Shown one piece after another: positions 18,337-36,714 of a stretch of 64,000 nt of DNA. The stretch covers positions 1 through 64,000 of IMG/VR virus record IMGVR_UViG_3300042469_000933. One strand, 5' to 3'. The stretch is from a virus. The position numbers and the translations under genes were made by a program. The first letter of the stretch is position 1, and each line of letters opens with the position of its first letter. The notes under the pieces were generated by a model. That model was not told the DNA's origin, searched no databases, and saw only the letters and a program-made list of their open reading frames with translations.

Positions 18337-18341
18337 TGGGG

Positions 18342-21300
18342 TTAGTCGTTAAGTGGTTTGCGGATGGTCTTGTCAGAAACGAGGTCGTAAATGTCAGCGA
18401 ACGTGGCACCGCCCGGTGCAAAGTACAGGGCTTTCTCTGGATGCAGAGGTACGTTCATCAAGCGCCAGGCGTTGTTCAGCACGGGTATTGCACTGCCTCC
18501 ACCACTGCCGGCCATGGTATAGACCAAACCGGGTGCGGAACCAGCAGCACCGTCCCATGCGATCTGCTTGAGCATGTCGAACATCTTGCGTTCGTACGTG
18601 TAAGCGGACTGCTTGTTGGGAGCAGTGATGAAGCTGTCCTCGTCATCATCGTCCTTCAGACCGTTGTAGATGAGGTAGCACAGAATGCACAGGATCGCGT
18701 CGTAGCTCAACTTGGCCAGCGCTCGCTTGTCAGCAGGGCGCATGTTCTTGAAGTCGGTCGTGCCCATTTCCCGGGCATCGGACAGCATCTTGAACATGTT
18801 GCCAAGAGCGGTCACGTAGCTGGTAATCTCTCGGCGCTCCCACACGGCCATCTTCTTACCGGACGCATCGGTCTTCATAACCAGACGGCCACCGGCATCC
18901 GAGTTGATGTCCCGGCCATGCCAGTTGTAGATGCGGTCCATCATGTAGGTCTTGAACGTGGTGAACATCCGACCGTACCATGCGCTGGAAAGGTTCGCCT
19001 TCTGCGAGGCATCCATACCACCGATGATGTACTTGTCAGCGATCCACTTGAACGTGCGGCCCATTTCAAGGTCGTAGCCCAGACGCAAGGGCTCGTTCTC
19101 TTTCTGATCCACCACACCTTGCTCGATGAGACGACGCTTCACCTCTTTGATAAGCACGCCACCGTCCTCGGTCAGCTTGCCATCGGCGCCGTACCAGCGA
19201 CGGTCCTTCTTTTCGTCGTACACCACTTCGCCTTTTGGGGTCAGTGAGTACGCATCCCAGGAGCCGTCCTTCAGCATCTGTGCCATCATCACCATGCCAC
19301 GCGTGTTGTTGTCGGTCCAGAAGTTACCGATGTTCATTGCGTGTCCGGAGAACAGCAGCTTGCGCGTATGGCTCTTGTTGAACGAATCAGCCAAGTCCTG
19401 TTGCTGCCACTCATTGATGAAGTGCTTCTCCATCAGTGCAGCCATCTTGTCCCGCTCCTTCTTGCTGGCCATGCGCTTGACTGCTTCGGCAAAGTGCTTC
19501 GCACTGAACAGACCATCATCTGCAATGGACGATGCTATGGAGAACCCAAGCATCTGCAGGTTGTTCATCACGCCGCTAGCCAGTGCAACTTTCCAGTTCC
19601 ACGCCACACCGATGAACGATGACGCACTGATCGCCATGTTCATGATCGGAGCAGGGTTCACGCCCATGACGTTGAACGTGTCCTTGATGGGCTCGTTGTA
19701 GATCATGCGCATGGCGTAATCCTCAAGGCTCTTCAGGTTGAACCGTTGGTCAACGCTCTCTTCCAAATTCTTGGCCAGCAACAGTGCGCGGGCTCCGTTA
19801 TACACAGGGACCGTTTCCTCTTCGTGAATGATCTGGCGGTCGGTGGCCAGTCGCACGTAGTTCAAAATGATCTCCAGGTTCATGGTCGAAGCCATGTTCC
19901 GTTCATCCGCTTCCGAGATCAGCTTGCCGTCCACGATCTCCAGACCCATCCGGCGAAGACGCGTAGAGCCGCCGATCTTGGAGAGCGGTTCGTGTATCTC
20001 CAACTCAGAGCCATAGGTGTTAGACACCCGGCCCTTCTCACGCTCTCCGCTGTTCTCTCCGCTCACGCGATCAGCATCCTGTGCGTAGATAGCATCCATG
20101 TTCGCACTGGCACCGAGCGACGTACTGAACGCTTCCTTGAACTTCAGGTTGAACACCGCCTCACTGGCCGGCCGGCGAACCACAGGAACCCATCCGCGTG
20201 GATAGTGCTTGGTCACGAACGCTTCAGCTTCTTTGCGAGCAAGCGCTTCGTCGAAGATGCCGGTCACCGGATCCCAATGGCGCATGTCCATCTTGTAGTC
20301 ATGAACGGTCTTGTCCACCATGGCCTTGTGGATCTCATCCAACGCGTAGTTGGCAAAGTCCAGTTCGGCCTGGGTGAGCTTTCCGGCCTTCAATTTGGCC
20401 GCGGTAGCTGGGTCGTTCTTGTTCCAGTGGAGCGTGTTGGTGTGCGCGCCGATGAGCTCTGTGCCATCCTTGCGGTACACCTTGTCCACACCTTCCTCGC
20501 CGCTGAGCTTCCACATGGCCTCAAAGCGTTTCCAGCCACGGTCGGCCAGCTCTACGCCACCCGGAACCTTCATGAAACTGGACTTCTCTTCCAAGGCCTT
20601 GATGCGAGCCGTCATTTCAGCGCGGAACACACCGTTTTTCGCAGCCAGTTTCATTACCGCTTGTTCGGTCTTGCGTACCACGGTCTGCACCACATCGCTC
20701 TGGATGTTGTGCGTGTTCTTCAGCAGGTGACCCACCATGCTCGTATCACGGATGGAGTTCGGGTTGGTCCGCCCATGCTGGTTCATGTCTTCAACCAAGT
20801 GAGCGAGCATGATGTATTCCGGGTCTGTGACCAGGTAAGCCTGTTTGTAGTCTTTCTGCATCATGCGCTGACGGTAACGAATGGCATCCAGCAGATTGGC
20901 ATTGCTGCCCTCTTCGCTGAACATTGCCTTTTCAGCAGCGGTACGCAAACGGTCACGGGCTGCAGTCTCCGTGAACGAACCACCTTCACCGGACGTACGC
21001 AGGAACTCGATGTACTGCTGCAGGAACGGCTGGTTGTACGCGTCCATGTCGAACAGGGTCTCATCGTTCAACACCGCCTTGATGTTGTCCGGTATCTCGT
21101 TCATGAACGCAGGGATGTTTTTCAGTAACCGCACCTCGTGGATGAAGTCGGACATCCATACACCTCCGTCCTTCCCGTCCTTCAGGCTCAACGCCTTGAT
21201 CCGGTGAAACGAAATGTTGGGGTTGGCCTGCTTCATGGCCATTGCCGTGAGCCCCATCAGGAATGTCCGGGCGCCGGAGCTGCTGTTGTGTGTGCGCAAC

Positions 21301-24300
21301 TTCTTCAGTGCTGACTGGAAAGGGCCGTGCATGTACACGGAGAGCAGGTAAGGACCAGCTCCAGTGTCACCACCGGGATTACCACGGGTTGTGGGGTCAA
21401 GCAGTGACACCGACTTCTTGCCGTTGCCATCCACGTACACCTGAACGATCGGGTTGAACCCATCGAAGCCAGGCACATACTTGATGCCCAGCTCGCTCAC
21501 CGGGATCTTGCGACCGTCCGATGTGGTGATGATGGTGTTCGGGTCCTTCAGGTCCGTATACTGAAGATAGATAGCGCCGGTCCGGTGCCCAGATGCTTCC
21601 TTGAACCACTTGGCGGTCTCTTTGGTCGTCATCGGGTTGCCGTCCGCGAAGACCATCTTGGTGTTCCAGTTCTGCTCAAGGTCGCCGGCCATGTTCATCA
21701 CGTCCATGACCTTTAACTTGGTCTGTGCGTCGCTGGTGGACACCTTGGGCATCACGTTCTTCCGGAGGTACTCCCGGATCTGCGTATCCGTCATTCCGTC
21801 GATGGAGAAACGAATGCCATCTAGCTCCTGTGCAATGCGTGAACGGTCCAGCCTGTTGAACAGACGCTCGACGTACTGCGAAGCCTGACGTTCTTCGTGC
21901 GTGATGAACGCCTTGGGGTCCGTCTGGAATCGGTCAACCAGGTCACGGATGTCCGTCACTGGCTTGAACTGTGGAGAAAGACCATGCTGTGCCGCGTTGG
22001 ACATGCGGAACGCCTCACCCATCGGCATGCGGTCGATACCGCTCCGTGAGGAACGCTTGATGTAGTCGTAGGACAAGCTGGTGATGCGGTTCACGTAATC
22101 GTTGCGTACGTACCCTGGAAACAGCGAGCGGATCGCATTGATGATGCGCCAGAAGATGTTCTGCTTGCTGCCAGGAGCCAACGAGCGAAGGTGCTGCTGA
22201 AAATCTGGGTTGCTCAGGGTCTCAGCCAGGAACTCGTGCACGTCTTTCATGCCGTAGTGATCCGAATTTGGATCCAGGGCCTTCACCTCGTTGAAGATGG
22301 TCTCCACTTTCTTGCGGAACTCAGCTTCCCATGCATTCAGCGAAGCCTCCGGAGCGTTCATCACACCCATGAGGAACCGGTGCAGCGCTTCGTGCAACAA
22401 TGTGTGTTCAGCATCTAGCTGCGTAATACCGTCCGACAGCATGATGTCGCCAGTGCTTGTAATGCGGCCAGCTACTCTGCCGCGAGCTCGCATATTGGCC
22501 ACATACGAATCACGGTCGTGTATCTGCAACTGCTCACCAAGGAACTCAGCAAGCTGACGGTACATCGGATGTTCCGTCTTCGACTGCAGCACCTTCAGCG
22601 CTTCCTTCAGCTGCTTTCCTTTCAGCTCCATGTGGCCGGGACCATAGGCAGACTTCTCCGACTTGGCAAAGCCCTTGCTGTCCACCTTCAGGATGTTGTT
22701 GGCCAGCGCTGGGTCTTCGTTGTTGCGAAGCTTGTGCGAGCCTGTGAGCGTACTGGCATCGAGTGTAATGGTATCTCCGGACTTCGTGAACTTGATGGAC
22801 TGTCCGGTCGGCAGGGCCACCTCGTTGCGCTCCATGATCCAGCCGGTCGTGGCTGCAATGGGAATCACCACATCCATACCGCGCAACAGTGCATCGTAAT
22901 CGCTCTTGCTCCAACGCTTGTGGACGTTCAATGCAGGACGTGACGAAGGAGCAAGGTCGATGACCGTACCAAGCTGGCTCCATGGAGAGTTTACCAGCTC
23001 GCCGGTATTCACATCGAACACCGAGTAGGTCCGCATCGAGCCGACCGTTTCTTTCTCAGCATAGTAACGAGCGCCGCGCATCTTGGCCGACTTGGCAGAC
23101 CAAGGGAGCATGCGCGGATGACCCACTACGAACTGACGCTTGGCAATGTCCAGCATCTTGTTGATGTTGATCTGACTGCCATCGTTCAGCGGCACCTGGT
23201 GAAGCTTTCCGTACTGCACTACACCAGCATGCAAGCTGTTCACGAAACTATCGTAGCGCAGGTACTCTTGAATGGGAACGAAACGAGCGATGGAAGCACT
23301 GCCCACAGCGAACTTGTCTTTCATCATGCTGTACAGCGTGACCATCTGCGACATGGGAACGTTCAGACCGTTTGCCACATCGCCGGTGAAGATCTCGTCA
23401 AGGCGCTCAGCCGCACGACGCACAGCTTCCGATTCACGCACGTCATTCATAATTTTCCGTGCCTTGGGCACCTCCAGTCGTGGTGTGCCCTTGTCCACGA
23501 TACGCAGCGAGTTCAGAAACTCGTTCTGCTTCATCAGGATCTTGCGTGGGTCACTGTTCTTTAGACGCTCCACACGAGCCATCATGGCTTTTAGGAAGCC
23601 CGGGAACTCCATGACGTAACGGTAGTGGCCACCCGGACCGCTAAGCGAAATGGGCTCCATGCCCCTGGTCAACCGGAACTGGCTATTGCCATGTGCTGTG
23701 TTCAGGTAACCCACGATCAAGGCCTGTTCAACCAAGTTCTCCCAATCGCGTCCAGCTTCGTTCGGCATGAACTCCATGCCAAGATCCTGGATCAGATCAG
23801 TGCGCGCATTGTCAACCAGGTGGTGCGCAAGCAGAATAGAATCAGAGAGCGTTTGACGCCCCCACTCAGCGACACCGTAGAAGCCGATCATGCTCGGTAT
23901 CTGCTCCATGATGCCACGAGCATCAATCACATCGTTGTACTCACCCACTCCACTACCCACCGCATTGTTGGCAAGGCCAGCCCATGCAACACCCAGTGTC
24001 TTCTGCGTGTCATTCTTGAACTCCTTCATTGCTTCAAGCGAATGCGGGATGCCCTTGGTGTTGATGGAGAACACACGGGAAAGGGCAGAAGATGCTTCCC
24101 CAATCGTAGCGTTCAGCTCCAGCCTCTTCAGGCCACGGATACGCTGAAGCCCATTCGGGTTCTCGGCCAACCATTGATTCATCTGCTCCGTGTCGGGCTC
24201 TTGAATAGCTACTCCATTGACGACACCTCCAGTGCGCTTCCACTCAGCGTGGTCTTTCATTGCCTTGACAACGTGTTCAGGCGGCATTGCTTCGCCCAGT

Positions 24301-27300
24301 TTCGCAGCAATGGCGTTTTGAAGCGTCTTCTTCCGAACACCGGAATCGCTCATGCTGTAGCTGTCAGCAAGCTGGTTAGTGCGCACAGCATCCTGAATGA
24401 TGGGGTCTTTCAACATCAGGAACGCCTCCTTCATGGAAGCGCCGTTGATGATAGCGCCCATCAGCAGATTCACGTTGTACGAGTTCACCCCCAGCTGACC
24501 CATCACCATCAGCTTGGTATTGTCCAGCATACCGTTGAGCAACTGATTGATGTTGGCCATGACCGGACGGCCGGTGCTGTCCTTGGCTTGTGGCATCCAC
24601 CCATCGAATAAAGGACTGTTGCCCTTCTCGTCCATGGTCTTCAGCGCAGCCTCCATCATGTAGCCATAGGCCTTCATGTGCTGTGCACCGATACCGATCA
24701 GCTGTGCGCCGTCCGAAGCCATCTTTCTGGCCAACGAGTTGTGCGAAGGCGTGAACAGTTCCATGCGCATGGCGTCTGCACCGTACACTTCAGGAAACTC
24801 AGCCATCAGCTCTTCCGCCACGGCCACAAGATCTTTGGTACCGGTGGAAGCCATGATCATTTCAGCGTTGGCAGGGTCCTGATAGAACTGCCACAACGCA
24901 TTCATGATGTTAGCCTGATTGACCGTCAGCGGGTCGTCACTGTCCAACGGCTCAATGGTCTCAAGCTTGGACCCATCGTCTTCGTCCACCTGAGCCTTCA
25001 CGTTGCGGAAGTACACCGACAATTGATCACCATCAAAGTCACCACCAGTTGGTACGTTCATTCCTGCAGGCGTGTAGATGCTGTTGCCGGAATCATTGAT
25101 GAACCCGACGATCTTCATCCACTGGCCAGAGCCAAGACCGGACGAAGGTGTACGGGTTACAAACACGTTTAGGTACCGCTCAAATGCAGCCAGACCAGCC
25201 TCACCTTGGTCACGAAAGATCTGCTCCTTCATGGCGTCAATGGGCATGGATGGGTCGGTGATGCCAAACGTAGCAGCATGCACGAACTTGATCATAATCT
25301 CGCCCGGCATGTACTGGCCATTTTCAATGCGCGGAGGCAGAAGCTCACGCATGCTTTCAGTCTTCACTATCTGTGAAGCAGGAGCAGGATTCTGTGCTTC
25401 CCACTCATTCATTGCAGCGGTCTGGTCCTCCAACTCTGCGCTTTGCTGAGCGGCAACATCTCGTTGCACTGAGTAGTTGGCCAGCTCTTCTTCGCTAGGG
25501 TCAACAACTTGCTCTGTCACCTCAGGCGTAAGCAGTCCATAGGCGCTGACCTGGGTAAACATTTGTCCGTGCATCTTTGGATTGATGCCATTGCGGGACA
25601 GTTCGTTCGCCAAGAATTCCACCAACTTCGGACGAAGAATAGGGTTGTTGATGTCGCTATTCGGGTTCGTGAGCATGTCCACAAACTGACCAGTACGGCC
25701 ATCGGCACTCATCTTGCGCAACCCAATGCCGCGCATCCATTCTTGGACCTTCTCAGTGCGCGTCGTACCAGACTGCCCCTGGATCATCACAGCCAGCTTG
25801 TTCAGGTAGTTCTCGGAGATTTTCTGTTCGATCTCGCGAATGACCTGCAGCTGAGCCCGACTTGCTTCCGATTCCGATACGCCAAACAGAGAGCTGAGCT
25901 GCGTGAAATACGGAGCCTCCATTTCGTCCGGATCCGTTGTGCGCTCCAGTACCGTCTGCAGACGCCAGAAGCGTGAGTCCACAGCCAAAGAAACCAACGG
26001 CGTATCGATGGCCAGTTGGTTCACGCCACGAAGACCCATCTTCACGTTGCTCTCCGAGGTGAGTAGGTGCACTAGCTGGTCACTTACACCCAGCTCCTGT
26101 GCTTTCTCCATGACCGCATCCGTGGCCTTGGCAAACGCTTCAGGATTCGCATCACCAATCGCATTGTTCCAAGCATCGAGCAATGGCGTTCCGGGTATCA
26201 CAGAGCCGTCAATGCCGGTCAACTCAGCCATAAGTGAGCGCTGCGTGATCTGTTGCAACCACAGGTTCTTTCCGTACAGTTCCGGCGAGATCACAGCCTC
26301 GCTGTACTTCACCTTGATGGAGTTGGTGCTGATGATGCGCTTGTTGACCGAAGCCTTGACCAGACCCTCCTGTCCACCGAATGCACGGCGAGCAATGGCC
26401 CACCCCCATGGCGTGGTGTAGCCCTGGCCATCCAGATGACTGACGCTGTTGCCGTTTTCGTCAATTGTCGTCATTTCAGAGAACACCGCAATGCGCGGCT
26501 CCAGCGGCATTCCGAACTGGCCACCGATCAATGGCTCGTGACCAGGAGAGAATGCAGTCACGCTCCGCTTGATGTAGTCCTGTGCGTTCTTGTAGTTGTG
26601 GGAGCCGCCGTCGATGACCGTACCCACCCAGTTGTTCACCAGGTGGCTCATCACGAAGTAGCCATACATCATGTTGCGACGACCGTTCGCATCAATGTTC
26701 ACAGCAGGATGTTGCCAGCCGATACCTGGCGTGGTTACCGTCTCGCTCTTTACCACCTCAACACCGTTCTCCATCACCTTCGTTTCCACGGTCTCGGTCT
26801 TACCGTTGACCATTTCTTCGAATGCCTTGAAGTAGGGCTCCATGATCTCGTCCATCACAGCTACTGCACCCTTGTCGGACTTCAGCATCTTGTCCCGGTT
26901 CGCACGGCTGTAGATGCTGGAATCCGTCATCATGATCGCATGCCCGAACGACACCTTGTCGCCGTCGATCATGTAGTCAGAATTCATGGCCAGCAACGGC
27001 GATGCTTTCACCAGGTATTTGAAGCCCGGACCTTGTGCGGCATTCAGTTTGGCCAGCACTTCCGATGCCTTTGCACTGGAGGGTAGACCAAAGAACGCAG
27101 CCCATGACCGAACCGAGTTGCCAGCAACCTGGTCCCGGTACGTGAACATATCCCTCAACCAAGCAGCCATTGGCTCCTTATTCACCGTGATGGAGCCATT
27201 GGTCTTGTTGAACAAGCGCTGGTTTCGGTCACCGGTAGGAATGTCGAGCTGATACAGCAGAATGGCATCACGGTCACCGAAGGGTGTGCCAGCGATACTC

Positions 27301-30300
27301 AACCGCTCTTCCTTGCGTGAGGACATGATATCCCGAACGAACAGATCATAGCCGATGCTAAACGCGTCACCTTGCGACAACTTGTTCGCATTCTTACCGG
27401 TCTCCTTTGTACGGGACGAGACCCCGGAGCCCAGGAACACGTTGCTGATACGCGCTGTGCTGTTGGATGGGTCAAGCAATGGAATGAGCGGAACCCCTTC
27501 TTTGCTGAGCAGAGCAGGGTCACGCTTGGCCAAATCCCTGGCCAGCATTTCCATGGCCTTGGATGAATGACTGTCCTGTGAAGCGCCTGGCAGCAGTTTG
27601 GAGAACGCTGTACCGAGGTTCGTAGCGTAGATGGTCTTTCCTGTGGCACCGACCATACGCTGCATGTAGGACGCTCCTTTGGAACGGTTCTCCACTGTGG
27701 CCAGAGCGCGGTTCAGCGCGAAGAACATCGAAGGCATCGGGTACTCATCAACGCCGAAACCGTCTGAACGACGGTCTGCAATGTCACCTACGGTCTCTTC
27801 CCCAACACCTCCGTACGAATCATTGAAGGAAGCAATCGTTTTGTTGGAGAACAGCGAGCTGTCCTTCTTGCCGGTCTCCACACGATGAATACCCGCATGA
27901 ATGGAGTAAGCCCACATACCAACGATGGAAGGCAACAAGGTCTTCTCTGCCCCTTCATTCGCTTTCAGCAAGTGGTCGATAGTGCGCGCGCTTACCGGGT
28001 AGCCGATCGCCTCAAAGAACTCTGCGAAGGCTTCCGGCTGCGTCTTGAACTCAGCACTGATCGAGAAGTTCAAACCCTTGCGGCGAACCAGCATGTTGCC
28101 GGCACCGTCCAGGACACCTTCCTCCGTGACCTTGAACTGTGGCGTCGCCTTATCCTTGGCAGAGCCCACGGCCCACTTGGAACGGAAGTCGTTGTCAAGA
28201 CTGATCGAAGAAGGTCCGTTCGCAAAGAACGGGTCTCGCAACGATGTCTTCATGGTACTCAGCACTTCACTGATCGCATCGAAGGTCAGGCGTTTGTGGT
28301 TGAACTTCGGCTGCGGCGCTTCACCGAACTGGTCAGTGCCTTCACCTTGGTAATGCTCCACCAGCCAACGGTTGCTTGCGGAGAGCTCTGCCAGCATACG
28401 CACCACGTTACCCAGCACACGCTCAGCTGCATCAATGCGAGCATCAATGTTCTCGAACTCCTTGGTGTTGGGTGTGTACTGGCTGAGCAGCCAACCGGCA
28501 TTCGCCGTCATGTACGCGTAACTGCGAAGCTGGTTACCCTCTTGGTCCAGATAGAACCCATCGGGATCCAGGTAACGCTTGTAGAACGTGTTGAGGTACA
28601 TCGCCTCCTTGCTCTCCGGGTCCACAGCCATTGCCTTGCGAACAGATTCCGCCAAGGATTCAATGGTGGACACTTCCTGCGTGGGAATGGAGAACTGAGC
28701 AGCCTGTTGAACGAGGAACGTCATCAGCTCCAGGTCCACATCATACGGGTCACCAATGACACGGTTCTGGCCACCCGGCATGCGCTGGATCAGCGACATG
28801 GACTGCAGAGATAACCGGGACAGGTCGCTTTGACGCTTGAACGGATTCAGGTTCTCGTTCGTGTCGTGTGCGTTTGCCGTAGAGTTCTCAATGGCCTCCA
28901 CGTCGATCTCCATGTTGGCTTCGTACTCTACCGCATCAGCAAGCTCTACTTGCGTGATGTCAGCATTAGGCAGAGCCACACGGGTGATCATTTTGAACAC
29001 CTGTGGGTCTCCTTTGTACCATGCCACGTAGTCGGACCACTGTGCATCGGTCATGGCCAGCACATCCTGCTTAGTGGCATTGTCGAAGGACTTGACATTG
29101 CCTTCAGCGTCCGTCAGGGAGGCCACTACCCGTTGCCGGCGAGCAGCGAAGCCTTGGAGCACTTTAGTAGCTGCTTGTGACAGCGTAGGAAGACTACGAC
29201 CAAATTCCGAATCAACCGGTGGAGCATAAAGCGATTCACCGATGATCTCGCGCACTGTGTCGTCCACCACAGCCACCGCGGTCGCGTGTGAGCCGAAGAT
29301 GTTGGACAGTACGTTCATGTCCTCATTCACCGAACGCTTTTTGCCGGTTGCATCTGGACGACGAGCTGGAGCAGGAGTTGATGGGTCGAAGCTGGCTGGC
29401 AACTCACCATCCTCACGAACAGAGTTGCGCACTACGGTCCGGCCACCCAAGTCATGGTCCTGTGCGCCACGGAACTCACCGTTCTCAATGCGGTACAGCA
29501 GCTCACCGATACGGTTGCTGTACATGCCCCAGCGTCCAAGCATGGCACGGAACCATTGCATGAACCGACCGAAGAACGTAGACGTGTCGTATGAAGGTGA
29601 TTCGTACTGCTCAGCGATGAACTCGTTGGCTTGTTCGTCCGTAACCTGCCAGTACGGAATGTTGTACTTCTCAGCGTAAGCCCGTGAAGCCTCGTTAATG
29701 ATGGACATCCGGCTCTGGTCGTCCAGCAACGTGTCCAGCACCCGGTGAACAGCTTCGTGTCGAGCCACACCCATCAGCACACGGCCCTTGGCATCCAAGT
29801 TCAGGGTGATGTACCCGTTCTCCATGACACCGTGGAGCGCGGTTCCGTCAACAGCCTGAAGGTTGGAACGGAAGTCCAGCTGATTGTCCACGAACCGATC
29901 ACCGAACACCTTGCGATAGTAGTTCTGTGCGGCCTCTTGTGATTCGGTACGCGACGTGTCACCAGCAGATGCAGCACGACGACGAACTGGAGCACGATAC
30001 GGAGCTGAACTTACTCCAGTGCCAATGACACCTGACGAGTTCGCGCCAATGGCAAACTCTGGAAGGTTCACACGGTCCGTTGACGGTATCAGGTCCCAGG
30101 TGTTGTCGATGATGCTCATGCCACCAGCGGAGCGGTTGCCGATCATCGCAGCCTTGGTAAGCATGATCTCGCTATCACGTACCAGTTCTACGGCTTTGCG
30201 AAGGTCATTGGCCCACTTGAGCGGGGTCATGCCTTGTGCACGGGTGCCGCGAAGCATCTGCGGCTTTCCCTTCTCGTTGATGGTCAAGAACTCATTCAGG

Positions 30301-33300
30301 CCTTCAACGACAAATTGCCCATCCTTGATGAGCACACTGCGGTTCCACTGGATAAATCCGAATGCTTTCGTCTTCTCGATGTTGTCACGGTCAAATGACG
30401 GTACTGCAGCGATCTCATCCGTGACGTTATCCAGCTCACGAATCAGGTCCTGGTAATACTTGGAATCAGCTTCCTTGGTCCGCATGAACACCTTCGTAGC
30501 AGGTGCTCCGTCCCAAGCAGAAACCTCCACAACAATTGCCGGCATCGACACCAGGTCTGTTCCCTCTTTGCGAGTCCATCCAGCGCCCTGTGGACTTCCG
30601 GCATGCGCCATCACAGGGTCGGTGACGAACAAGCCACGTCGCTCTACCAACTGAATGAAGGCTTCGTAATCGCCAACAGCTTCAGCCTCCACATTGTTAC
30701 GAACGCCTTCGTACAGCTCACCGACTGGAATGTTGGAATACTTGGCGATTGTCTTACCCTCTTCCCATTCATTGGCGAATAGCTCTTCGGCAAAACGATC
30801 CATTTCCAGTTTGAATGGACTGTCCTGAGCCAAGGTGTTCATGAACAATGAACCCACCATGGTGTACCCAGCGGCTTCAAGTTCTGCCTGGGTCATCTGG
30901 GGCATCTTGTTCTCCTTCAAGATCCTGTTGACCATGGCTGCACCGTTGGCTACATGAACCTCGACACCAGGAACCTTGGCAGCTCCATTGTCTCCGGTCC
31001 ATTCACCCTCTACACGCTTGACTAACTTCATTGTGAAGCTTCCTGGATCTGACCAGATAGCCTTCATTACGCCCATACGGATGACGAAGGCCTTGTTCGT
31101 GATAGAGAGCGCGGTTTCGTTGTTCGGGAACTTAGGCGTCCAGCGGAACGAAGCAGAAGAACTGATGAACGCTGTTCCGGCGCTGTCGCTGCGTTTGGAT
31201 ACACGGGTTGGAACTCCTGCAGGAGCATCTTCAGGAATGGGGTTTTCACCTTCCTTGTCATCCACTGGCTCTTCCTCGTTGTCGGTAGTAGGCTCTGCAT
31301 CATTGGGGTCAGCCGTAGGAACCGGAGTGCCCTTGGCGTTCTTCAGGAAGCTGTTCTTGATACGCAGCTCGTCACCGTTCTGACGACGAACCTTGGTCAC
31401 CTTGCCATCATCCTCCACCACGGTCAGATACTCACCGTAAAGATCCTGCATAGCCCGGCCTTGCTTGCTTTTCTTGAACTTGGAGTTCACCTGAACCATT
31501 GCACCTGGTGCGCGGCCTTTCTGTACGACCGGTGCATTCGGATCCGTTGGTGCCGTAGTGGGCGGGGCAGGCGCCGTTGGAGCGGTCGGCACAACGTCAG
31601 CTGGTACACGTGGTGCCAGGTCACGATGCACGGCAGACAGGTACCCGCGTACCCGTGACGAAATCTCGTTGAGGCTTTGACCGTCCGAAGGGATGGGCAT
31701 GATCTTGTCCACCTCAGAGGACTGACCATTCGGAAGCAGTGCAACAGCACCGTTCTTACCACGGCTGATCGCTGTGTATAGGAAGCGTCCGAAAGCATTG
31801 TCGAAGCCAGCAGGGTCCAGCGCCACGAACGCTACGTTGGCTTCGAGACCAAGCACGCTGTGCTCGCCTCCGTCCATGGTCAGGATACGCGCTTCGTGTC
31901 CAGGTGTGAATGCGGAGATCTTGGCCATTGCCAGGATCGCTTCCTGACGCTGTGCCTCGTCCTTCACAATGAGAATGGCGTCACCGCTGAACTCACTGTT
32001 GTTCACGCTCTCGGACAAGTGCGCTCCGAACGCATTGTAGATGGAAGAGATACCACCTCCGGACATGTACCGTACACCGTGGTTGTTCTTGGTGTAGTGC
32101 GATGCCGGCAGGACGATAGAGTTCTGGGTGCCGCTGGCGATGTACGAACGCAGTGCATCAATGGAACGCAACACCTCGGCGTTGTTGTGCCGGAAACTCA
32201 CTTGAAGCGGCGCCGTACGCATGGATGCGCGCTGCACAGGGAACGTGTAAGACATGTTCCGGAGCGAAGGCACCTGAGCAGGGTCACCAAGCATCAAAGC
32301 CCCCGTCTCCGGGAGCTTCTCCATCATGCCCTTCATCTGAAGGACCGCATTGCCATCCATGACGTGCGCTTCGTCGTAGATGATGAGATCCAGGTCTTTG
32401 GGCGGATTGCTCATGTCCGTGATGTGTACAGGCTCGTGCGTGTACTCCTTGGTGGACATCACGATAGCACTGGAGAGCTCCGTTACGTTCTTCGTACCGG
32501 GCGCTATGATACCCACACGAAGCTTCCGGCCCTTGATGTTGGCTACCGTGTTCACGATAGCAGGGATCAGCATCTTCGTCTTGCCCACACCTGGCATGCC
32601 CGGGATAGTGATCGCACGAGGAATGATGATCGCTCCTTGAGCCAACGGAGCAACGATAGTCGTGAGCTTGTGGGTCAGGTCATGGTCCGGATTGCTCAGG
32701 AACGAACTGGCCTCGATCACACGCTGCTGCTGTTCTTCGTTTGGAGCGTAGCCCACAGTGGATGCTGCGGTACCGACGAACCGTGCGTAAGCGTCCAACA
32801 CGGTCGCGTGACGGTTCCGGGACAAGCGGCTCACCCAGCCCACCATGTACTGAAACCCAGCCATAGCCTTCACGATGGAAGGCTTCTGTCCATCATCCAG
32901 AAACAGCTCTTCATTGAACCTTGCCGGAAACGAAGCATTGTCGATGGACTTCGTTTCGTAGTAGTTGGAGGCTGACTTCAGCTGACCGTTCAACAGGTCA
33001 CCGTAGGTCTCCTTGATCAGCGCAATACCCGTCTCATCACCGGTGACTAAAAGCTCGCTCACCATGTCCTCCGCACGGTTCACCAGCACCTCATAGTTGT
33101 CGTTTGGAATGGCGCCTGGAGTTGAAGCAAAAGCATCGAGCTCAGCTTGCATCAGCTTCACCGTTTCAATGAACTCCGGCTTGGTGGAGAGCTTGCCTGC
33201 CGTTCCAGCCAACTTCAGCAGCAGCGAACCACGGAGCATCAAGTCAACACGGCGGATCTGGTCCAGCTGCTCTTTCCGCTTGTTCACCATGCCTTCCATG

Positions 33301-36300
33301 CGCTCAAGCTGGCGCTCAAGATCGGCGATGATGTCAGTAAGCTCCTGATTAAACTGGTTCGCATCGATGGTAGCAGCAGGGTCATACACTTGTGACTTCT
33401 CCTGCTTGAACTGTGCAAATGCCGGTGGAACAGCATTGCCGGACTGTGCAGACCCGGCCTTCATCAGCTTCTCGTCACCGAAGAACTTCTCGGCCACCTG
33501 GTGCATGGTGGTGGAATAGTGCTTGAAGACCTCTTTGTTGGACTTGGCCAAGTTGATCAGCGAGGCCAGGGTCTGGATGTCAGCGATACTCGGCGTCTCG
33601 GTGAGCTTGAAGCGCTCAATAGCGCCACGGAATAAAGCGACCGAAGCGTTATCTCCGGTCGGGTGCGACTTCAAGAACTCAGCGAGCAGGTCTGCCTGAC
33701 TACGCTTCCCTTCGAGTTCCGCTGCCGGCATGTACTGTTGAGCCACAGCATCACGTTCTGCCGGAGTCTTGCCGAACATGCTCATCTGGTCATTGAGGAT
33801 CTGCAACTCACGGAACGCGATGCTCCGTTCGTCACTCTCAGGAAGAGCGTTGATACGCTGCGGGTTCAGGCCGGATGTGATCCACTGCTCAAACTCCAGC
33901 GCGCCGGAAGGGTCTTCTGCTGCATGTGCCTCATCAAACGAAGTATTGGGGCTCGTGTCGCTCAACGCCTCCATCTTGGCCAGGTCTGCGATGAGCGCCT
34001 GCTTGGCATTGGCCAACGCAGTGTATCCCTCCTGAACTTCCTCACGGGTCATGGCGGCATTTCCAGGCTGTGCATTGAGCACCTTGTTTGTGACCTGACG
34101 ATAGCCAATGATCGCATCCAGGATCTTGCTTGTCTTTGCCGTGGAGAGGTTGTCAATAGCATCGCTCAGCTCCGTGCCAATGCTCTGACGGAACAGATTT
34201 ACTTCCTCGATACGCGCCTCACGTGCGGCTGTCCAGTCGGTGAATCGCTTGGTGATGACATCGACCTGCTCTGAATTGGCAAAGCCTTCATCCTTTGCGT
34301 CAATGGAGTTTATCAGCATGGCCCGCTGCTTGAACCGATTCAGCAGCTCGGTGCCATCCAGAATCTTGGCAACAGCCTGTTTGTTGACCTCAAGACTTTT
34401 CTCCAACTCCGCTTTCTCAGCTTCACGCTGCTCTGCCGTCTGACCTTCAGCGAGCGGCTGCTCATTCAAGTCAGCAAGCTGCTTGTTGATGCCCTCCATT
34501 TCCATCCGACGCTGAGCGTACTCCGTCACCATGTCCTGTTCTTGCAGGAGCAGGTTCAGAGTCTTGGGGTCAGCAACATTGAATTCGCGCATGATGCTTT
34601 CAGAGAGCCGAACATCTTGCGTCAGAACGTTCACATCGTCCTCGGTAAGTGTCCCGGCCTGCTGCATGGTTGCAGCCCTGTCCAGGATCTCCTTGCCCTT
34701 GCCTTCTGCAACGGCGCCGGCAACACCCTTATCGTAAGGATTGGGACGGCTACGGCCGTTGTTCAGCATGGCCATTGGCATGGTGCCCACAAAGCCACCT
34801 ACAGCACTTTCCAGCACACGTGCGCTGAAAGAGTAGTCCTCCGGCCGGCTTTTCTCAAATCGGTTCTCGTTGGTCATCCAGTCGGTCGCCCACTCAAGCA
34901 AAGCATACCCGCCCTCTTCAAAGCCCTCCTGCTTGCCTTCAGTGTACATGGCCTCCAGACTGTTCTTTGCCCAGCCACCGAAACGACCTGCTGGCTCCTT
35001 GGCCCACCACTTAGCGAGATTTGAGTTAATCATCAGCGCCTTGTTCAAGGGGCTCATACGCTCTGGGATCTTCCGGCTCAACCACTCACTGATCTTGTCA
35101 CGGGTCACGTTGGCACCACCCTTGTCCATGTAGGACCGGATCATCCATTGACGACCGATCGCCATTTCAGCAATACCCATGATGGGCAGCGCCACAATGG
35201 CCTGGACCTTCGCCTGGTCGTGGCTGTATCCGACATCGCGTGCGGACTGATACACGATCTGACCCATCGTGAGCGACGGAATGGAAGCAGAGCCAACGGC
35301 AACCGTGCGCTGGCCAAGCGAACTCAGCTGAGGCGTCATGCCATTGATAATACCACGAGTCACCAAGGACTTGGCACCGGTCTTCAAGAGCGCCTGAGCA
35401 AGCAGGGTAGCGCCGGCCTTTTGCGGAAGCAGGAATCCGGTCATGTCGCCGAACAACGTTCCAAGACCTTCTGCACTTCCGAACATGCCATGAGCCTCTA
35501 CGTTCTCACTGGGATTGAACGTGCTGGCATCCTGATAGATCTTGAACCGGTCTGCGTAACGCTCAAGGAATCCACGACCTGTGTTGCCTTGATGAGCATT
35601 GTACATTTCAAGGGCCAGACGGGACTTCACGTCACCTTGCTTTGCGGCCGCCTTGTAGCCCTCCAAATTGTTGTGCACATCCTGCACCATTGCATTGATG
35701 CGCTCCTGAGTAGGGCCAGGACCGCGTGCACCAAGGGTGATTGCTCCACGCTCAAGATCCGGAACGGCTCCATCGGTCCAGTCACCACCAAGGTGACGCT
35801 CAACGTCAGCAGCAGTAGAAAGTCCGGTGTTTTCCAAATTGTGGTAAGCCTTGGCCCAAAAAGCCACATCGCTGGTTTGTTTCTCACCCAGTGCGGCCTT
35901 GGCGGCATTAGCCCAGAACACCACTCCGTTGTAGGTCGCATACAGAGCAGCCTGAGCTGCGTTGCGGTTCAATGGCTGCGGACCGTTACCGCCCAGCATT
36001 TCCATCCCGTAGCCGGGACTGTTACGTGGTATGGCCTGAAGGCCGGGCACTTCAAGCAGGTCACCATCTGGACCGGTGGTCGTGACCGGAACGACAGCAA
36101 AGCGCCTGGTGTTGTGGAAGAAGCTTGGAATGTGCTCAGACTTCAGCGGTTGGCGTTTGCCAAACTCATCAATGAAGAACGGCATAGAAGCGGCCATTTC
36201 CTGGCGCGACTTCCCGTCAGCGGCCATGCGCTCACCGTCAATAGACTTGTACTCGTAAGGGTTGATGACCCCCTTGGTCCTCGTGGTCTCCGTAGCCGGC

Positions 36301-36650
36301 CAAACGCCGTTCTGCTGGGACCTGTTTTGCGGGGCTCGGTAGTATTGGGCCAGCTTCTGTGAACTAGGCACCATCTGCATGAGCGCTCCGGTGATGTCGA
36401 TCTCTTCCTGCAGCTCTACCGGCGTTCCGTCCGGGAGCCTCTCAGACTTGGCGTATTTGGGGTCGTCCCGGTACTTCTCCTTGATCTTCGCCGTATCGAA
36501 CTCAATGTCGAAATCGCCCGCGTTCGCACGCTGACCGACTCGGTACACGTATTGTCCTGGGTTGAAGTTTGGATCTGTTGTTGCGCCGCCTTTGATTGCT
36601 TCAAAAAAGTCCAACTTTCCCTTCGGTGGACCTTGTTGCTGTTGGGCCAT
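18342..36650 (-). CDS. Giant polyvalent virion protein: helicase, RNA polymerase-like, two metallopeptidases
   Basis: A single uninterrupted 6102-residue frame. Domains in order: residues 1-560, charged and helical with a hydrophobic stretch; about 1340-1650, an SF1 helicase (GMPGVGKTK near 1349, YDEAHV near 1424, GDPAQVPS, and TAISRGK); near 2298, HEAVHR with a downstream NEFIAEQYE, a zinc metallopeptidase; about 3390-4000, an RNA polymerase-like double-psi barrel region (LDGQGYTTPWGWAI and later GGDFDGDQLSVYF near 3871, the metal-binding DFDGD of RNAP beta-prime); near 4753, HEALHRFL with HEFLAETLSNP, a second metallopeptidase; and a helical C-terminus with one membrane-like segment near 5987. 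crAss-like phages carry giant virion polymerases that are injected with DNA. This chain probably does the same, adding helicase and peptidase functions. The domain calls are from motifs. Confidence 0.85.
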   Translation of the reverse strand: MAQQQQGPPKGKLDFFEAIKGGATTDPNFNPGQYVYRVGQRANAGDFDIEFDTAKIKEKYRDDPKYAKSERLPDGTPVELQEEIDITGALMQMVPSSQKLAQYYRAPQNRSQQNGVWPATETTRTKGVINPYEYKSIDGERMAADGKSRQEMAASMPFFIDEFGKRQPLKSEHIPSFFHNTRRFAVVPVTTTGPDGDLLEVPGLQAIPRNSPGYGMEMLGGNGPQPLNRNAAQAALYATYNGVVFWANAAKAALGEKQTSDVAFWAKAYHNLENTGLSTAADVERHLGGDWTDGAVPDLERGAITLGARGPGPTQERINAMVQDVHNNLEGYKAAAKQGDVKSRLALEMYNAHQGNTGRGFLERYADRFKIYQDASTFNPSENVEAHGMFGSAEGLGTLFGDMTGFLLPQKAGATLLAQALLKTGAKSLVTRGIINGMTPQLSSLGQRTVAVGSASIPSLTMGQIVYQSARDVGYSHDQAKVQAIVALPIMGIAEMAIGRQWMIRSYMDKGGANVTRDKISEWLSRKIPERMSPLNKALMINSNLAKWWAKEPAGRFGGWAKNSLEAMYTEGKQEGFEEGGYALLEWATDWMTNENRFEKSRPEDYSFSARVLESAVGGFVGTMPMAMLNNGRSRPNPYDKGVAGAVAEGKGKEILDRAATMQQAGTLTEDDVNVLTQDVRLSESIMREFNVADPKTLNLLLQEQDMVTEYAQRRMEMEGINKQLADLNEQPLAEGQTAEQREAEKAELEKSLEVNKQAVAKILDGTELLNRFKQRAMLINSIDAKDEGFANSEQVDVITKRFTDWTAAREARIEEVNLFRQSIGTELSDAIDNLSTAKTSKILDAIIGYRQVTNKVLNAQPGNAAMTREEVQEGYTALANAKQALIADLAKMEALSDTSPNTSFDEAHAAEDPSGALEFEQWITSGLNPQRINALPESDERSIAFRELQILNDQMSMFGKTPAERDAVAQQYMPAAELEGKRSQADLLAEFLKSHPTGDNASVALFRGAIERFKLTETPSIADIQTLASLINLAKSNKEVFKHYSTTMHQVAEKFFGDEKLMKAGSAQSGNAVPPAFAQFKQEKSQVYDPAATIDANQFNQELTDIIADLERQLERMEGMVNKRKEQLDQIRRVDLMLRGSLLLKLAGTAGKLSTKPEFIETVKLMQAELDAFASTPGAIPNDNYEVLVNRAEDMVSELLVTGDETGIALIKETYGDLLNGQLKSASNYYETKSIDNASFPARFNEELFLDDGQKPSIVKAMAGFQYMVGWVSRLSRNRHATVLDAYARFVGTAASTVGYAPNEEQQQRVIEASSFLSNPDHDLTHKLTTIVAPLAQGAIIIPRAITIPGMPGVGKTKMLIPAIVNTVANIKGRKLRVGIIAPGTKNVTELSSAIVMSTKEYTHEPVHITDMSNPPKDLDLIIYDEAHVMDGNAVLQMKGMMEKLPETGALMLGDPAQVPSLRNMSYTFPVQRASMRTAPLQVSFRHNNAEVLRSIDALRSYIASGTQNSIVLPASHYTKNNHGVRYMSGGGISSIYNAFGAHLSESVNNSEFSGDAILIVKDEAQRQEAILAMAKISAFTPGHEARILTMDGGEHSVLGLEANVAFVALDPAGFDNAFGRFLYTAISRGKNGAVALLPNGQSSEVDKIMPIPSDGQSLNEISSRVRGYLSAVHRDLAPRVPADVVPTAPTAPAPPTTAPTDPNAPVVQKGRAPGAMVQVNSKFKKSKQGRAMQDLYGEYLTVVEDDGKVTKVRRQNGDELRIKNSFLKNAKGTPVPTADPNDAEPTTDNEEEPVDDKEGENPIPEDAPAGVPTRVSKRSDSAGTAFISSSASFRWTPKFPNNETALSITNKAFVIRMGVMKAIWSDPGSFTMKLVKRVEGEWTGDNGAAKVPGVEVHVANGAAMVNRILKENKMPQMTQAELEAAGYTMVGSLFMNTLAQDSPFKLEMDRFAEELFANEWEEGKTIAKYSNIPVGELYEGVRNNVEAEAVGDYEAFIQLVERRGLFVTDPVMAHAGSPQGAGWTRKEGTDLVSMPAIVVEVSAWDGAPATKVFMRTKEADSKYYQDLIRELDNVTDEIAAVPSFDRDNIEKTKAFGFIQWNRSVLIKDGQFVVEGLNEFLTINEKGKPQMLRGTRAQGMTPLKWANDLRKAVELVRDSEIMLTKAAMIGNRSAGGMSIIDNTWDLIPSTDRVNLPEFAIGANSSGVIGTGVSSAPYRAPVRRRAASAGDTSRTESQEAAQNYYRKVFGDRFVDNQLDFRSNLQAVDGTALHGVMENGYITLNLDAKGRVLMGVARHEAVHRVLDTLLDDQSRMSIINEASRAYAEKYNIPYWQVTDEQANEFIAEQYESPSYDTSTFFGRFMQWFRAMLGRWGMYSNRIGELLYRIENGEFRGAQDHDLGGRTVVRNSVREDGELPASFDPSTPAPARRPDATGKKRSVNEDMNVLSNIFGSHATAVAVVDDTVREIIGESLYAPPVDSEFGRSLPTLSQAATKVLQGFAARRQRVVASLTDAEGNVKSFDNATKQDVLAMTDAQWSDYVAWYKGDPQVFKMITRVALPNADITQVELADAVEYEANMEIDVEAIENSTANAHDTNENLNPFKRQSDLSRLSLQSMSLIQRMPGGQNRVIGDPYDVDLELMTFLVQQAAQFSIPTQEVSTIESLAESVRKAMAVDPESKEAMYLNTFYKRYLDPDGFYLDQEGNQLRSYAYMTANAGWLLSQYTPNTKEFENIDARIDAAERVLGNVVRMLAELSASNRWLVEHYQGEGTDQFGEAPQPKFNHKRLTFDAISEVLSTMKTSLRDPFFANGPSSISLDNDFRSKWAVGSAKDKATPQFKVTEEGVLDGAGNMLVRRKGLNFSISAEFKTQPEAFAEFFEAIGYPVSARTIDHLLKANEGAEKTLLPSIVGMWAYSIHAGIHRVETGKKDSSLFSNKTIASFNDSYGGVGEETVGDIADRRSDGFGVDEYPMPSMFFALNRALATVENRSKGASYMQRMVGATGKTIYATNLGTAFSKLLPGASQDSHSSKAMEMLARDLAKRDPALLSKEGVPLIPLLDPSNSTARISNVFLGSGVSSRTKETGKNANKLSQGDAFSIGYDLFVRDIMSSRKEERLSIAGTPFGDRDAILLYQLDIPTGDRNQRLFNKTNGSITVNKEPMAAWLRDMFTYRDQVAGNSVRSWAAFFGLPSSAKASEVLAKLNAAQGPGFKYLVKASPLLAMNSDYMIDGDKVSFGHAIMMTDSSIYSRANRDKMLKSDKGAVAVMDEIMEPYFKAFEEMVNGKTETVETKVMENGVEVVKSETVTTPGIGWQHPAVNIDANGRRNMMYGYFVMSHLVNNWVGTVIDGGSHNYKNAQDYIKRSVTAFSPGHEPLIGGQFGMPLEPRIAVFSEMTTIDENGNSVSHLDGQGYTTPWGWAIARRAFGGQEGLVKASVNKRIISTNSIKVKYSEAVISPELYGKNLWLQQITQRSLMAELTGIDGSVIPGTPLLDAWNNAIGDANPEAFAKATDAVMEKAQELGVSDQLVHLLTSESNVKMGLRGVNQLAIDTPLVSLAVDSRFWRLQTVLERTTDPDEMEAPYFTQLSSLFGVSESEASRAQLQVIREIEQKISENYLNKLAVMIQGQSGTTRTEKVQEWMRGIGLRKMSADGRTGQFVDMLTNPNSDINNPILRPKLVEFLANELSRNGINPKMHGQMFTQVSAYGLLTPEVTEQVVDPSEEELANYSVQRDVAAQQSAELEDQTAAMNEWEAQNPAPASQIVKTESMRELLPPRIENGQYMPGEIMIKFVHAATFGITDPSMPIDAMKEQIFRDQGEAGLAAFERYLNVFVTRTPSSGLGSGQWMKIVGFINDSGNSIYTPAGMNVPTGGDFDGDQLSVYFRNVKAQVDEDDGSKLETIEPLDSDDPLTVNQANIMNALWQFYQDPANAEMIMASTGTKDLVAVAEELMAEFPEVYGADAMRMELFTPSHNSLARKMASDGAQLIGIGAQHMKAYGYMMEAALKTMDEKGNSPLFDGWMPQAKDSTGRPVMANINQLLNGMLDNTKLMVMGQLGVNSYNVNLLMGAIINGASMKEAFLMLKDPIIQDAVRTNQLADSYSMSDSGVRKKTLQNAIAAKLGEAMPPEHVVKAMKDHAEWKRTGGVVNGVAIQEPDTEQMNQWLAENPNGLQRIRGLKRLELNATIGEASSALSRVFSINTKGIPHSLEAMKEFKNDTQKTLGVAWAGLANNAVGSGVGEYNDVIDARGIMEQIPSMIGFYGVAEWGRQTLSDSILLAHHLVDNARTDLIQDLGMEFMPNEAGRDWENLVEQALIVGYLNTAHGNSQFRLTRGMEPISLSGPGGHYRYVMEFPGFLKAMMARVERLKNSDPRKILMKQNEFLNSLRIVDKGTPRLEVPKARKIMNDVRESEAVRRAAERLDEIFTGDVANGLNVPMSQMVTLYSMMKDKFAVGSASIARFVPIQEYLRYDSFVNSLHAGVVQYGKLHQVPLNDGSQININKMLDIAKRQFVVGHPRMLPWSAKSAKMRGARYYAEKETVGSMRTYSVFDVNTGELVNSPWSQLGTVIDLAPSSRPALNVHKRWSKSDYDALLRGMDVVIPIAATTGWIMERNEVALPTGQSIKFTKSGDTITLDASTLTGSHKLRNNEDPALANNILKVDSKGFAKSEKSAYGPGHMELKGKQLKEALKVLQSKTEHPMYRQLAEFLGEQLQIHDRDSYVANMRARGRVAGRITSTGDIMLSDGITQLDAEHTLLHEALHRFLMGVMNAPEASLNAWEAEFRKKVETIFNEVKALDPNSDHYGMKDVHEFLAETLSNPDFQQHLRSLAPGSKQNIFWRIINAIRSLFPGYVRNDYVNRITSLSYDYIKRSSRSGIDRMPMGEAFRMSNAAQHGLSPQFKPVTDIRDLVDRFQTDPKAFITHEERQASQYVERLFNRLDRSRIAQELDGIRFSIDGMTDTQIREYLRKNVMPKVSTSDAQTKLKVMDVMNMAGDLEQNWNTKMVFADGNPMTTKETAKWFKEASGHRTGAIYLQYTDLKDPNTIITTSDGRKIPVSELGIKYVPGFDGFNPIVQVYVDGNGKKSVSLLDPTTRGNPGGDTGAGPYLLSVYMHGPFQSALKKLRTHNSSSGARTFLMGLTAMAMKQANPNISFHRIKALSLKDGKDGGVWMSDFIHEVRLLKNIPAFMNEIPDNIKAVLNDETLFDMDAYNQPFLQQYIEFLRTSGEGGSFTETAARDRLRTAAEKAMFSEEGSNANLLDAIRYRQRMMQKDYKQAYLVTDPEYIMLAHLVEDMNQHGRTNPNSIRDTSMVGHLLKNTHNIQSDVVQTVVRKTEQAVMKLAAKNGVFRAEMTARIKALEEKSSFMKVPGGVELADRGWKRFEAMWKLSGEEGVDKVYRKDGTELIGAHTNTLHWNKNDPATAAKLKAGKLTQAELDFANYALDEIHKAMVDKTVHDYKMDMRHWDPVTGIFDEALARKEAEAFVTKHYPRGWVPVVRRPASEAVFNLKFKEAFSTSLGASANMDAIYAQDADRVSGENSGEREKGRVSNTYGSELEIHEPLSKIGGSTRLRRMGLEIVDGKLISEADERNMASTMNLEIILNYVRLATDRQIIHEEETVPVYNGARALLLAKNLEESVDQRFNLKSLEDYAMRMIYNEPIKDTFNVMGVNPAPIMNMAISASSFIGVAWNWKVALASGVMNNLQMLGFSIASSIADDGLFSAKHFAEAVKRMASKKERDKMAALMEKHFINEWQQQDLADSFNKSHTRKLLFSGHAMNIGNFWTDNNTRGMVMMAQMLKDGSWDAYSLTPKGEVVYDEKKDRRWYGADGKLTEDGGVLIKEVKRRLIEQGVVDQKENEPLRLGYDLEMGRTFKWIADKYIIGGMDASQKANLSSAWYGRMFTTFKTYMMDRIYNWHGRDINSDAGGRLVMKTDASGKKMAVWERREITSYVTALGNMFKMLSDAREMGTTDFKNMRPADKRALAKLSYDAILCILCYLIYNGLKDDDDEDSFITAPNKQSAYTYERKMFDMLKQIAWDGAAGSAPGLVYTMAGSGGGSAIPVLNNAWRLMNVPLHPEKALYFAPGGATFADIYDLVSDKTIRKPLND

Positions 36651-36655
36651 GATAT

Positions 36656-36693: not shown

Positions 36694-36714
36694 ACGGTTT
36701 AATGGTGCGTCCGC

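What the first reader, a model, noticed from the sequence alone, without database searches (positions are those of the whole stretch)
18342..36650. 6102-residue polyvalent virion protein combining helicase, RNA polymerase-like and peptidase domains
One frame fills almost 29% of the window and stays open for 18.3 kb. It carries a complete SF1 helicase signature, the DFDGD motif of RNA polymerase beta-prime with a nearby candidate beta-like barrel, and two HExxH metallopeptidase motifs. Known crAss-like virion polymerases are often separate or smaller; here the transcription machine seems fused with an ejection motor-like helicase.
Basis: partly seen in the sequence, partly recalled or inferred. 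Interest (0 to 1): 0.85.

Follow-up and report, generated by a model that had tools for sequence, protein, structure and literature searches.

The report
Phage RNA polymerase fused to helicase
A virus of the crAssphage kind makes one gigantic protein that joins the RNA polymerase such viruses carry inside their particles to a DNA-unwinding motor and two protein-cutting domains, and related viruses have coupled a motor to this polymerase at least twice, which suggests the two work together when the virus enters a cell.

Summary
The 18.3-kb frame (18342-36650, minus strand, 6102 aa) is real and intact. The phage is crAss-like: its TerL, portal and capsid proteins match, and the giant gene lies in the usual order after the tail genes. 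The protein is the whole crAss "transcription block" in one chain: N-terminal module, SF1 helicase, zincin 1, two-barrel RNA polymerase core, zincin 2, and a C-terminal part homologous to phi14:2 g065. A profile of known crAss polymerases built without it finds residues 3774-4105. The predicted fold's best PDB match is 6VR4, the phi14:2 virion polymerase (E 4e-13). The helicase has all the SF1 motifs and fold matches to RecD, RecD2 and Dda. A distant relative (G015) has a collinear 6381-aa frame, helicase included. New here: the helicase is absent from phi14:2, crAss001 and cr4_1. An N-terminal helicase marks one clade of RNAPs (8 of 8 rows). A different, Dda-like helicase is fused C-terminal to the RNAP in other lineages, including gut genomes cr118_1 and cr50_1, annotated only "DNA helicase". 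A helicase therefore joined this polymerase at least twice. Giant size alone is not new. Virion location is inferred from orthologues; helicase function is untested.

The parts
18342..36650 (-). 6102-aa giant ORF: fused crAss-like transcription block (polyvalent vRNAP protein)
   Evidence: collinear 6381-aa homologue in G015
36655..36694 (-). 18-bp hairpin in the 64-nt gap upstream of the giant ORF, ending 4 nt before its ATG; role unknown
   Evidence: MFE -32.7 kcal/mol, z -6.6; only perfect stem of 11 bp or more with a 3-15 nt loop in the window
34869..35648 (-). N-terminal conserved module, residues 335-594, related to cr4_1 gp26 236-516
   Evidence: hhalign probability 91
31701..32618 (-). 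SF1 helicase domain, residues 1345-1650 (RecD/Dda-like), all motifs present
   Evidence: Pfam AAA_30 7.7e-8; family profile 2.8e-7; PDB fold matches RecD, RecD2, Dda
32577..32600 (-). helicase motif I (Walker A) GMPGVGKT, residues 1351-1358
   Evidence: GK invariant in 9 relatives
32364..32375 (-). helicase motif II (Walker B) DEAH, residues 1426-1429
   Evidence: DE invariant
32274..32288 (-). helicase motif III GDPAQ, residues 1455-1459
   Evidence: G, D, Q invariant
31761..31778 (-). helicase motif VI YTAISR, residues 1625-1630
   Evidence: (Y and R invariant)
29427..29876 (-). zincin-like metallopeptidase 1 (HEAVH 2298-2302), residues 2259-2408
   Evidence: 30% identical to G015, E 1.6e-12; hhalign 93 to cr4_1 gp26 and 90 to crAss001 gp47
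25266..25583 (-). DPBB-B (beta-like barrel) region, residues about 3690-3795, invariant G3695, Q3700, G3705
   Evidence: alignment A3 with 10 crAss RNAPs; profile covers 6VR4 1112-1702
24996..25154 (-). DPBB-A (beta-prime-like barrel), residues 3833-3885
25026..25040 (-). catalytic metal-binding motif DFDGD, residues 3871-3875
   Evidence: three Asp invariant in 44 sequences
24381..24728 (-). bridge-helix and trigger-loop-like region, residues 3975-4090
   Evidence: second profile segment 3912-4105; D4043 invariant, K4046 nearly so
22140..22400 (-). zincin-like metallopeptidase 2 (HEALH 4753-4757), residues 4751-4837
   Evidence: 34% identical to phi14:2 g065, E 3e-10
18567..19232 (-). C-terminal module, residues 5807-6028, homologous to phi14:2 g065 1145-1341; hydrophobic segment then acidic DDDDED
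   Evidence: blastp 5e-4; hhalign 90
41865..45758 (-). 1297-aa tail (muzzle/tail-stabilization) protein, homologue of phi14:2 g071 and crAss001 gp44
53460..55883 (-). portal protein
   Evidence: phrog_6547 9e-75
55901..57787 (-). large terminase; crAss-like
   Evidence: phrog_6681 3e-80; 28-30% identical to Crassvirales TerL

Best explanation
The gene encodes the complete crAss-like virion transcription machine as one polyvalent chain. By analogy with phi14:2 and crAss001 it is packed in the capsid and injected ahead of, or with, the DNA. The two-barrel RNA polymerase core (residues about 3570-4130) then transcribes early genes. The zincin domains may cut the chain into pieces (N-terminal + helicase / polymerase / g065-like part) during packaging or after entry. 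The SF1 helicase (1345-1650) is a working partner of the polymerase: it opens or translocates the incoming double-stranded DNA, giving the polymerase single-stranded template and helping to draw the genome in. Shown here: the single frame; its homology to crAss RNAP, zincins and g065; intact SF1 motifs; conservation of the helicase in a clade; a separate RNAP-helicase fusion in other lineages. Inferred: virion location, peptidase processing, helicase activity and its coupling to transcription.
For: Crassvirales-type TerL, portal and capsid. Collinear with cr4_1 gp26+gp27 and G015. The RNAP profile without the window matches it at E 3e-11 to 3e-12; profile A3 hits 6VR4 at 6e-70. The RNAP model (blocks mostly at pLDDT 70-90 over 3770-4080) has 6VR4 as top fold match, then cellular beta-prime and phage RNAPs. 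Helicase evidence. The N-terminal helicase is present in all 8 rows of one RNAP clade (SH-aLRT 98-99, robust to leaving out either long branch). A C-terminal Dda-like helicase lies in the same ORF as RNAP in 13 IMG/VR contigs and in cr118_1 and cr50_1. Orthologues g065, g066 and g067 of phi14:2 are annotated as found by virion MS, and crAss001 gp47/49/50 likewise (PMC10172136). N4 vRNAP is active only on denatured or ssDNA template (PMC12633501), and the related QDE-1 works on ssDNA with RPA and the helicase QDE-3 (PMC2950127).
Against: No virion proteomics or biochemistry exists for this phage. The helicase is absent from well-studied relatives (phi14:2, crAss001, cr4_1), so it is not essential to crAss-type early transcription in general. 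The helicase structure model has low confidence (mean pLDDT 36). Half of the RNAP model is also poor (pTM 0.54). Helicase direction and substrate are unknown.
Confidence: 0.6

Rival explanations
1. The helicase is mainly a DNA-entry motor: anchored at the ejection channel, it pulls the genome into the cell by ATP-driven translocation, and its fusion to the polymerase serves only packaging and co-delivery.
For: vRNAP fusions to channel or tape proteins have been proposed to couple DNA entry with transcription (PMC10770324, P23-45); the C-terminus has a hydrophobic segment followed by an acidic one, with a hydrophobic peak at the same place in G015 and similar acidic tails in cr4_1 gp27 and ctcc615.
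Against: SF1B-type helicases such as RecD and Dda act on single strands, and no translocation on duplex DNA is shown; no membrane or channel domain was identified next to the helicase.
Confidence: 0.2
2. The helicase is a jump-start replication or recombination enzyme delivered with the polymerase and released by the zincins, not used in transcription.
For: The C-terminal type is closest to the stand-alone SF1 (Dda-like) helicases of crAss phage replication blocks (cr110_1).
Against: The N-terminal type has no match to any GenBank phage helicase; both types are placed with the polymerase rather than with the primase or DNA polymerase genes.
Confidence: 0.12
3. The helicase is a counter-defence module, as in the methylase-helicase proteins of phage P1 and plasmids, blocking RecBCD-type or restriction nucleases on the entering DNA.
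For: Polyvalent injected proteins often carry counter-defence domains (PMC5512222); the helicase has RecD-like fold matches.
Against: No methylase, nuclease-inhibitor or ParB-like domain detected beside it; those known helicases are SF2/SNF2 rather than SF1B.
Confidence: 0.06
4. The single frame is an assembly or annotation artefact joining separate genes.
For: Most crAss phages, including close-domain relatives L119, L120, L154 and L191, split the block into two or more genes.
Against: The frame is uninterrupted over 18.3 kb; a second contig (32 kb) reads the same from before the start codon to residue 4342; G015 is single-frame in more than one contig; L148 and L194 also fuse helicase and RNAP.
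Confidence: 0.02

Closest known systems
Cellulophaga phage phi14:2 g067-g066-g065 (g066 = virion RNAP, PDB 6VR4)
   Same: Same gene order after the tail genes; homologous two-barrel RNAP core; g065 is homologous to our zincin 2 and C-terminus; g065-g067 annotated from virion proteomics.
   Different: Three separate proteins (1797, 2180 and 1421 aa); no SF1 helicase; no HExxH in g066 or g067.
crAssphage cr4_1 gp26 + gp27 and crAss001 gp47/gp50/gp49
   Same: Collinear N-terminal module, zincin 1, RNAP, zincin 2 and acidic C-terminus (cr4_1); crAss001 gp47 shares zincin 1; the crAss001 proteins are in the virion (PMC10172136).
   Different: Split into two or three genes, on opposite strands in crAss001; no helicase domain detected.
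Giant 'DNA helicase' proteins of gut crAss phages cr118_1 (4946 aa) and cr50_1 (4774 aa)
   Same: Zincin 1 + crAss RNAP + SF1 helicase in one chain.
   Different: Helicase is C-terminal to the RNAP and of the Dda-like replication type; zincin 2 and g065-like part not in this chain; RNAP part not named in the annotation.
Thermus phage P23-45 gp96 (tape measure fused virion RNAP, PMC10770324)
   Same: Giant virion protein with a DFDGD two-barrel RNAP and a metallopeptidase domain.
   Different: Siphovirus tape measure protein, RNAP at the N-terminus, no helicase reported.
N4-type virion RNAP polyvalent proteins (PMC5512222)
   Same: Giant injected protein with RNAP and zincin domains.
   Different: T7-like single-subunit polymerase fold, not two-barrel; no helicase in N4 gp50.

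Membership tests
crAss-like (Crassvirales) virion two-barrel RNA polymerase | DxDxD motif in DPBB-A context (RIP/RTP..G..S....VGF...G..I..P....G.DFD.D) | tested here: met
crAss-like (Crassvirales) virion two-barrel RNA polymerase | second barrel (DPBB-B) upstream on the same chain, bridge helix and trigger region downstream | tested here: met
   sequence profile aligns with 6VR4 1112-1702; G/Q/G and D..K columns conserved; fold match to 6VR4 over 811 columns, but TM-score only 0.34 because half of the model is poor
crAss-like (Crassvirales) virion two-barrel RNA polymerase | RNA synthesis activity, rifampicin-resistant early transcription | not testable with these tools
   needs expressed protein
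crAss-like (Crassvirales) virion two-barrel RNA polymerase | packaged in the virion | not testable with these tools
   only orthologues known from MS (PMC10172136)
Crassvirales (phage) | crAss-type TerL, portal, MCP and tail proteins in conserved order | tested here: met
   a deep clade of its own, nearest TerL 42% (L016)
Crassvirales (phage) | IHF-like protein and gene 74/75 homologues | not tested
   small structural genes at 46334-49718 were not assigned
SF1 helicase | motifs I, II, III, V, VI in order in two RecA-like domains | tested here: met
   fold matches RecD, RecD2 and Dda from a low-confidence model
SF1 helicase | SF1B (5'-3') polarity | tested here: inconclusive
   best matches RecD, Dda and Pif1 suggest SF1B; activity unknown
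Polyvalent proteins (Iyer 2017) | injected multidomain protein combining disparate activities with zincin peptidase | tested here: inconclusive
   domain combination met; injection not testable

The most novel reading that the evidence does not exclude
crAss-like phages have at least twice, with different helicase families and at opposite sides of the polymerase, built a virion-delivered helicase-RNA polymerase that enters the cell as a single chain and opens, pulls in and transcribes the incoming genome without host enzymes. The 6102-aa protein is the all-in-one form.
Probability: 0.3. Interest if true: 0.8.

Novelty: new variant of a known kind. Interest (0 to 1): 0.62.

Why it matters
How crAss-type virion polymerases get single-stranded template from the incoming double-stranded genome, and what the huge extra regions of these proteins do, is open. 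A helicase repeatedly joined to the polymerase, intact in motifs and kept across 22%-identical homologues, gives a concrete, testable answer for one group. It also shows that gut phage proteins deposited only as "DNA helicase" (cr118_1, cr50_1) carry a crAss-type RNA polymerase core with a helicase attached.

Tried and rejected
Single-sequence searches (Pfam, PHROGs, phmmer on PDB, tblastn on GenBank phages) gave only weak RNAP signals; profiles were needed. The PHROG hit to "virion RNA polymerase" (phrog_2206) falls on zincin 2, not on the polymerase. HEPVH at 1405 was rejected as a peptidase motif (inside the helicase). I asked whether reference crAss proteins hide a degenerate helicase: hhalign of 1300-1720 against phi14:2, crAss001 and cr4_1 gave under 1%. 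TerL phylogeny does not group the N-terminal-helicase phages (5 changes) while the RNAP tree does, so the transcription block may move as a unit or be lost elsewhere; long branches make this uncertain. The hairpin upstream of the giant gene was not found as a strong fold upstream of the G015 giant, so no shared regulatory element is claimed. A helicase model with zincin 1 in one 1200-aa job was too shallow in alignment (9 rows) for a confident structure.

Full report
OBSERVATION. The minus-strand frame 18342-36650 is open for 6102 residues. It holds one Walker A (GMPGVGKT, 1351), DEAH (1426), GDPAQ (1455), YTAISR (1625), HEAVH (2298), DFDGD (3871) and HEALH (4753). A second contig (IMGVR_UViG_3300042482_000528, 32 kb) carries the same gene, identical over the part compared, from before its start codon to residue 4342. 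The window is 64,000 bases of a 64,465-base virus record without terminal repeats, so the genome is probably incomplete.

WHAT KIND OF PHAGE. Terminase, portal and capsid proteins match head-and-packaging PHROGs. TerL is 28-30% identical to Crassvirales TerL and sits in a deep clade with L016 (42% identical), L027, L030 and G015 (SH-aLRT 100). The 1297-aa gene is homologous to phi14:2 g071 and crAss001 gp44. The giant gene follows two cargo-size genes (721 and 991 aa), as in cr4_1 and phi14:2.

THE POLYMERASE. tblastn gave only weak hits, but nearly all were crAss or Thermus phage RNAPs at the motif. Aligned with ten crAss RNAPs, the region shows the DPBB-A block (R.P..G..S....VGF...G..I..P......G.DFD.D), an upstream G....Q....G block in the place of DPBB-B, and the downstream D..K and P blocks. 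A profile of nine known crAss RNAPs, built without the window and G015, finds the giant protein at 3774-4105 with E 3e-11. In a control with 200 shuffles the best shuffle reached E 2 against 3e-12 for the protein. The combined profile finds PDB 6VR4 at 6e-70. AlphaFold2 on 44 sequences gave blocks mostly at pLDDT 70-90 for residues about 3770-4080. Foldseek's only match below 0.001 is 6VR4 (3.8e-13), followed by cellular beta-prime and phage RNAPs. The TM-score is low (0.34) because half of the 1151-residue segment is poorly modelled. In G015 the motif reads DQDID; the three aspartates are invariant in all 44 sequences.

THE HELICASE. Pfam AAA_30 and AAA_19 exceed their curated cut-offs. A profile of seven helicases from other crAss-like contigs, built without the window, finds residues 1345-1650 at 2.8e-7; the only shuffle listed has E 8.6. 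Across nine relatives the invariant residues are the SF1 hallmark ones: GK, DE, GD..Q and the motif VI R. The profile's PDB hits include Dda, RecD and Pif1. The structure model is of low confidence (mean pLDDT 36, about 50-60 in the first RecA domain), yet its fold matches are SLFN11, RecD, RecD2, viral SF1 helicases and Dda. Reference crAss proteins (phi14:2, crAss001, cr4_1) show nothing at this place.

OTHER MODULES. Residues 335-594 resemble cr4_1 gp26 236-516. Zincin 1 resembles cr4_1 gp26 and crAss001 gp47. Zincin 2 and the C-terminus (5807-6028) resemble phi14:2 g065. The protein therefore equals the separate transcription-block proteins of known crAss phages joined end to end, plus a helicase. 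G015 (58.7 kb; three contigs of the same or a near species) has a 6381-aa single frame in the same order, 22% identical.

HOW WIDESPREAD IS THE LINK. Among 80 crAss-like RNAP loci fetched from IMG/VR, helicase profiles find two arrangements. Type A: helicase N-terminal of zincin 1 and RNAP, in the same frame (window, G015, L148, L194) or in an upstream gene (L119, L120, L126, L154, L191). Type B: a longer Dda-like helicase C-terminal to the RNAP in the same frame (13 contigs, several near-identical). In a tree of the RNAP core, type A is one group of 8 rows (SH-aLRT 99), and the window and G015 each join it when the other is left out (99 and 98). Type B lies elsewhere, in several subclades. 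Type B helicases are closest to crAss phages' own SF1 helicases. Two of those hits, cr118_1 (4946 aa) and cr50_1 (4774 aa), are deposited as "DNA helicase" but carry the crAss RNAP (profile E 2.5e-114 and 9.7e-101) in the same chain. cr110_1 has a stand-alone SF1 helicase in its replication genes. Two positions and two helicase types imply at least two separate joinings. Counts are not corrected for near-identical contigs, truncated flanks or the detection limit.

MECHANISM. Shown: homology, intact motifs and recurrent linkage. From the literature: phi14:2 RNAP makes rifampicin-resistant early transcripts (PMC10136315); crAss001 gp47/49/50 are virion cargo that must partly unfold to leave (PMC10172136); zincins in polyvalent proteins are proposed to process the chain (PMC5512222); N4 vRNAP works only on denatured or single-stranded template (PMC12633501); QDE-1, related in structure to crAss RNAP, works on ssDNA with RPA and the helicase QDE-3 (PMC2950127). 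Inference: the injected helicase opens or moves along the entering DNA for the polymerase. A pure entry-motor role, a replication role and counter-defence remain possible.

NOVELTY. Giant crAss RNAP genes of up to about 6000 aa are known (PMC10136315), and virion RNAPs fused to other giant proteins are known (PMC10770324, PMC5512222). I found no paper in the held library that reports an SF1 helicase fused to a crAss RNAP. Yutin 2021 (PMC7886860) lists SF1 helicases in a gene-content figure, but its Fig. 3 domain drawing could not be read and Drobysheva 2021 is not held, so prior notice cannot be excluded. I rate this a new variant of a known kind.

Noticed in passing
window 36655-36694: The only perfect hairpin stem of 11 bp or more with a 3-15 nt loop in the 64-kb window lies directly upstream of the giant gene's start codon (18-bp RNA stem, z -6.6); no comparably strong fold was found upstream of the G015 giant gene.
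   Followed up: partly
L209/L214 (G015 TerL, 52811-56062 of that contig): The terminase frame of G015 is 1084 aa because of an insert of about 400 aa between residues matching 432 and 433 of our TerL, as an intein would give.
   Followed up: no
L220 (cr118_1 16381-31221) and L222 (cr50_1 65825-80149): Deposited gut crAss proteins named only 'DNA helicase' are zincin + crAss RNA polymerase + C-terminal SF1 helicase fusions; annotation misses the polymerase.
   Followed up: yes
window 3649-4470 and 7854-8690: The phage encodes a ThiF-family adenylyltransferase and a PAPS-reductase-family protein (Pfam 6.8e-9 and 6.3e-20), beside a PD-(D/E)XK nuclease at 9138-9941.
   Followed up: no
window 11987-18336: Two large proteins (1169 and 951 aa) downstream of the giant gene have almost no family match; the second shows a weak similarity to a G015 frame in the same place and a weak PKD hit.
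   Followed up: no
TerL tree versus RNAP tree: Phages with the N-terminal helicase are scattered by terminase but grouped by RNA polymerase, hinting that the transcription block moves between crAss-like lineages as a unit.
   Followed up: partly
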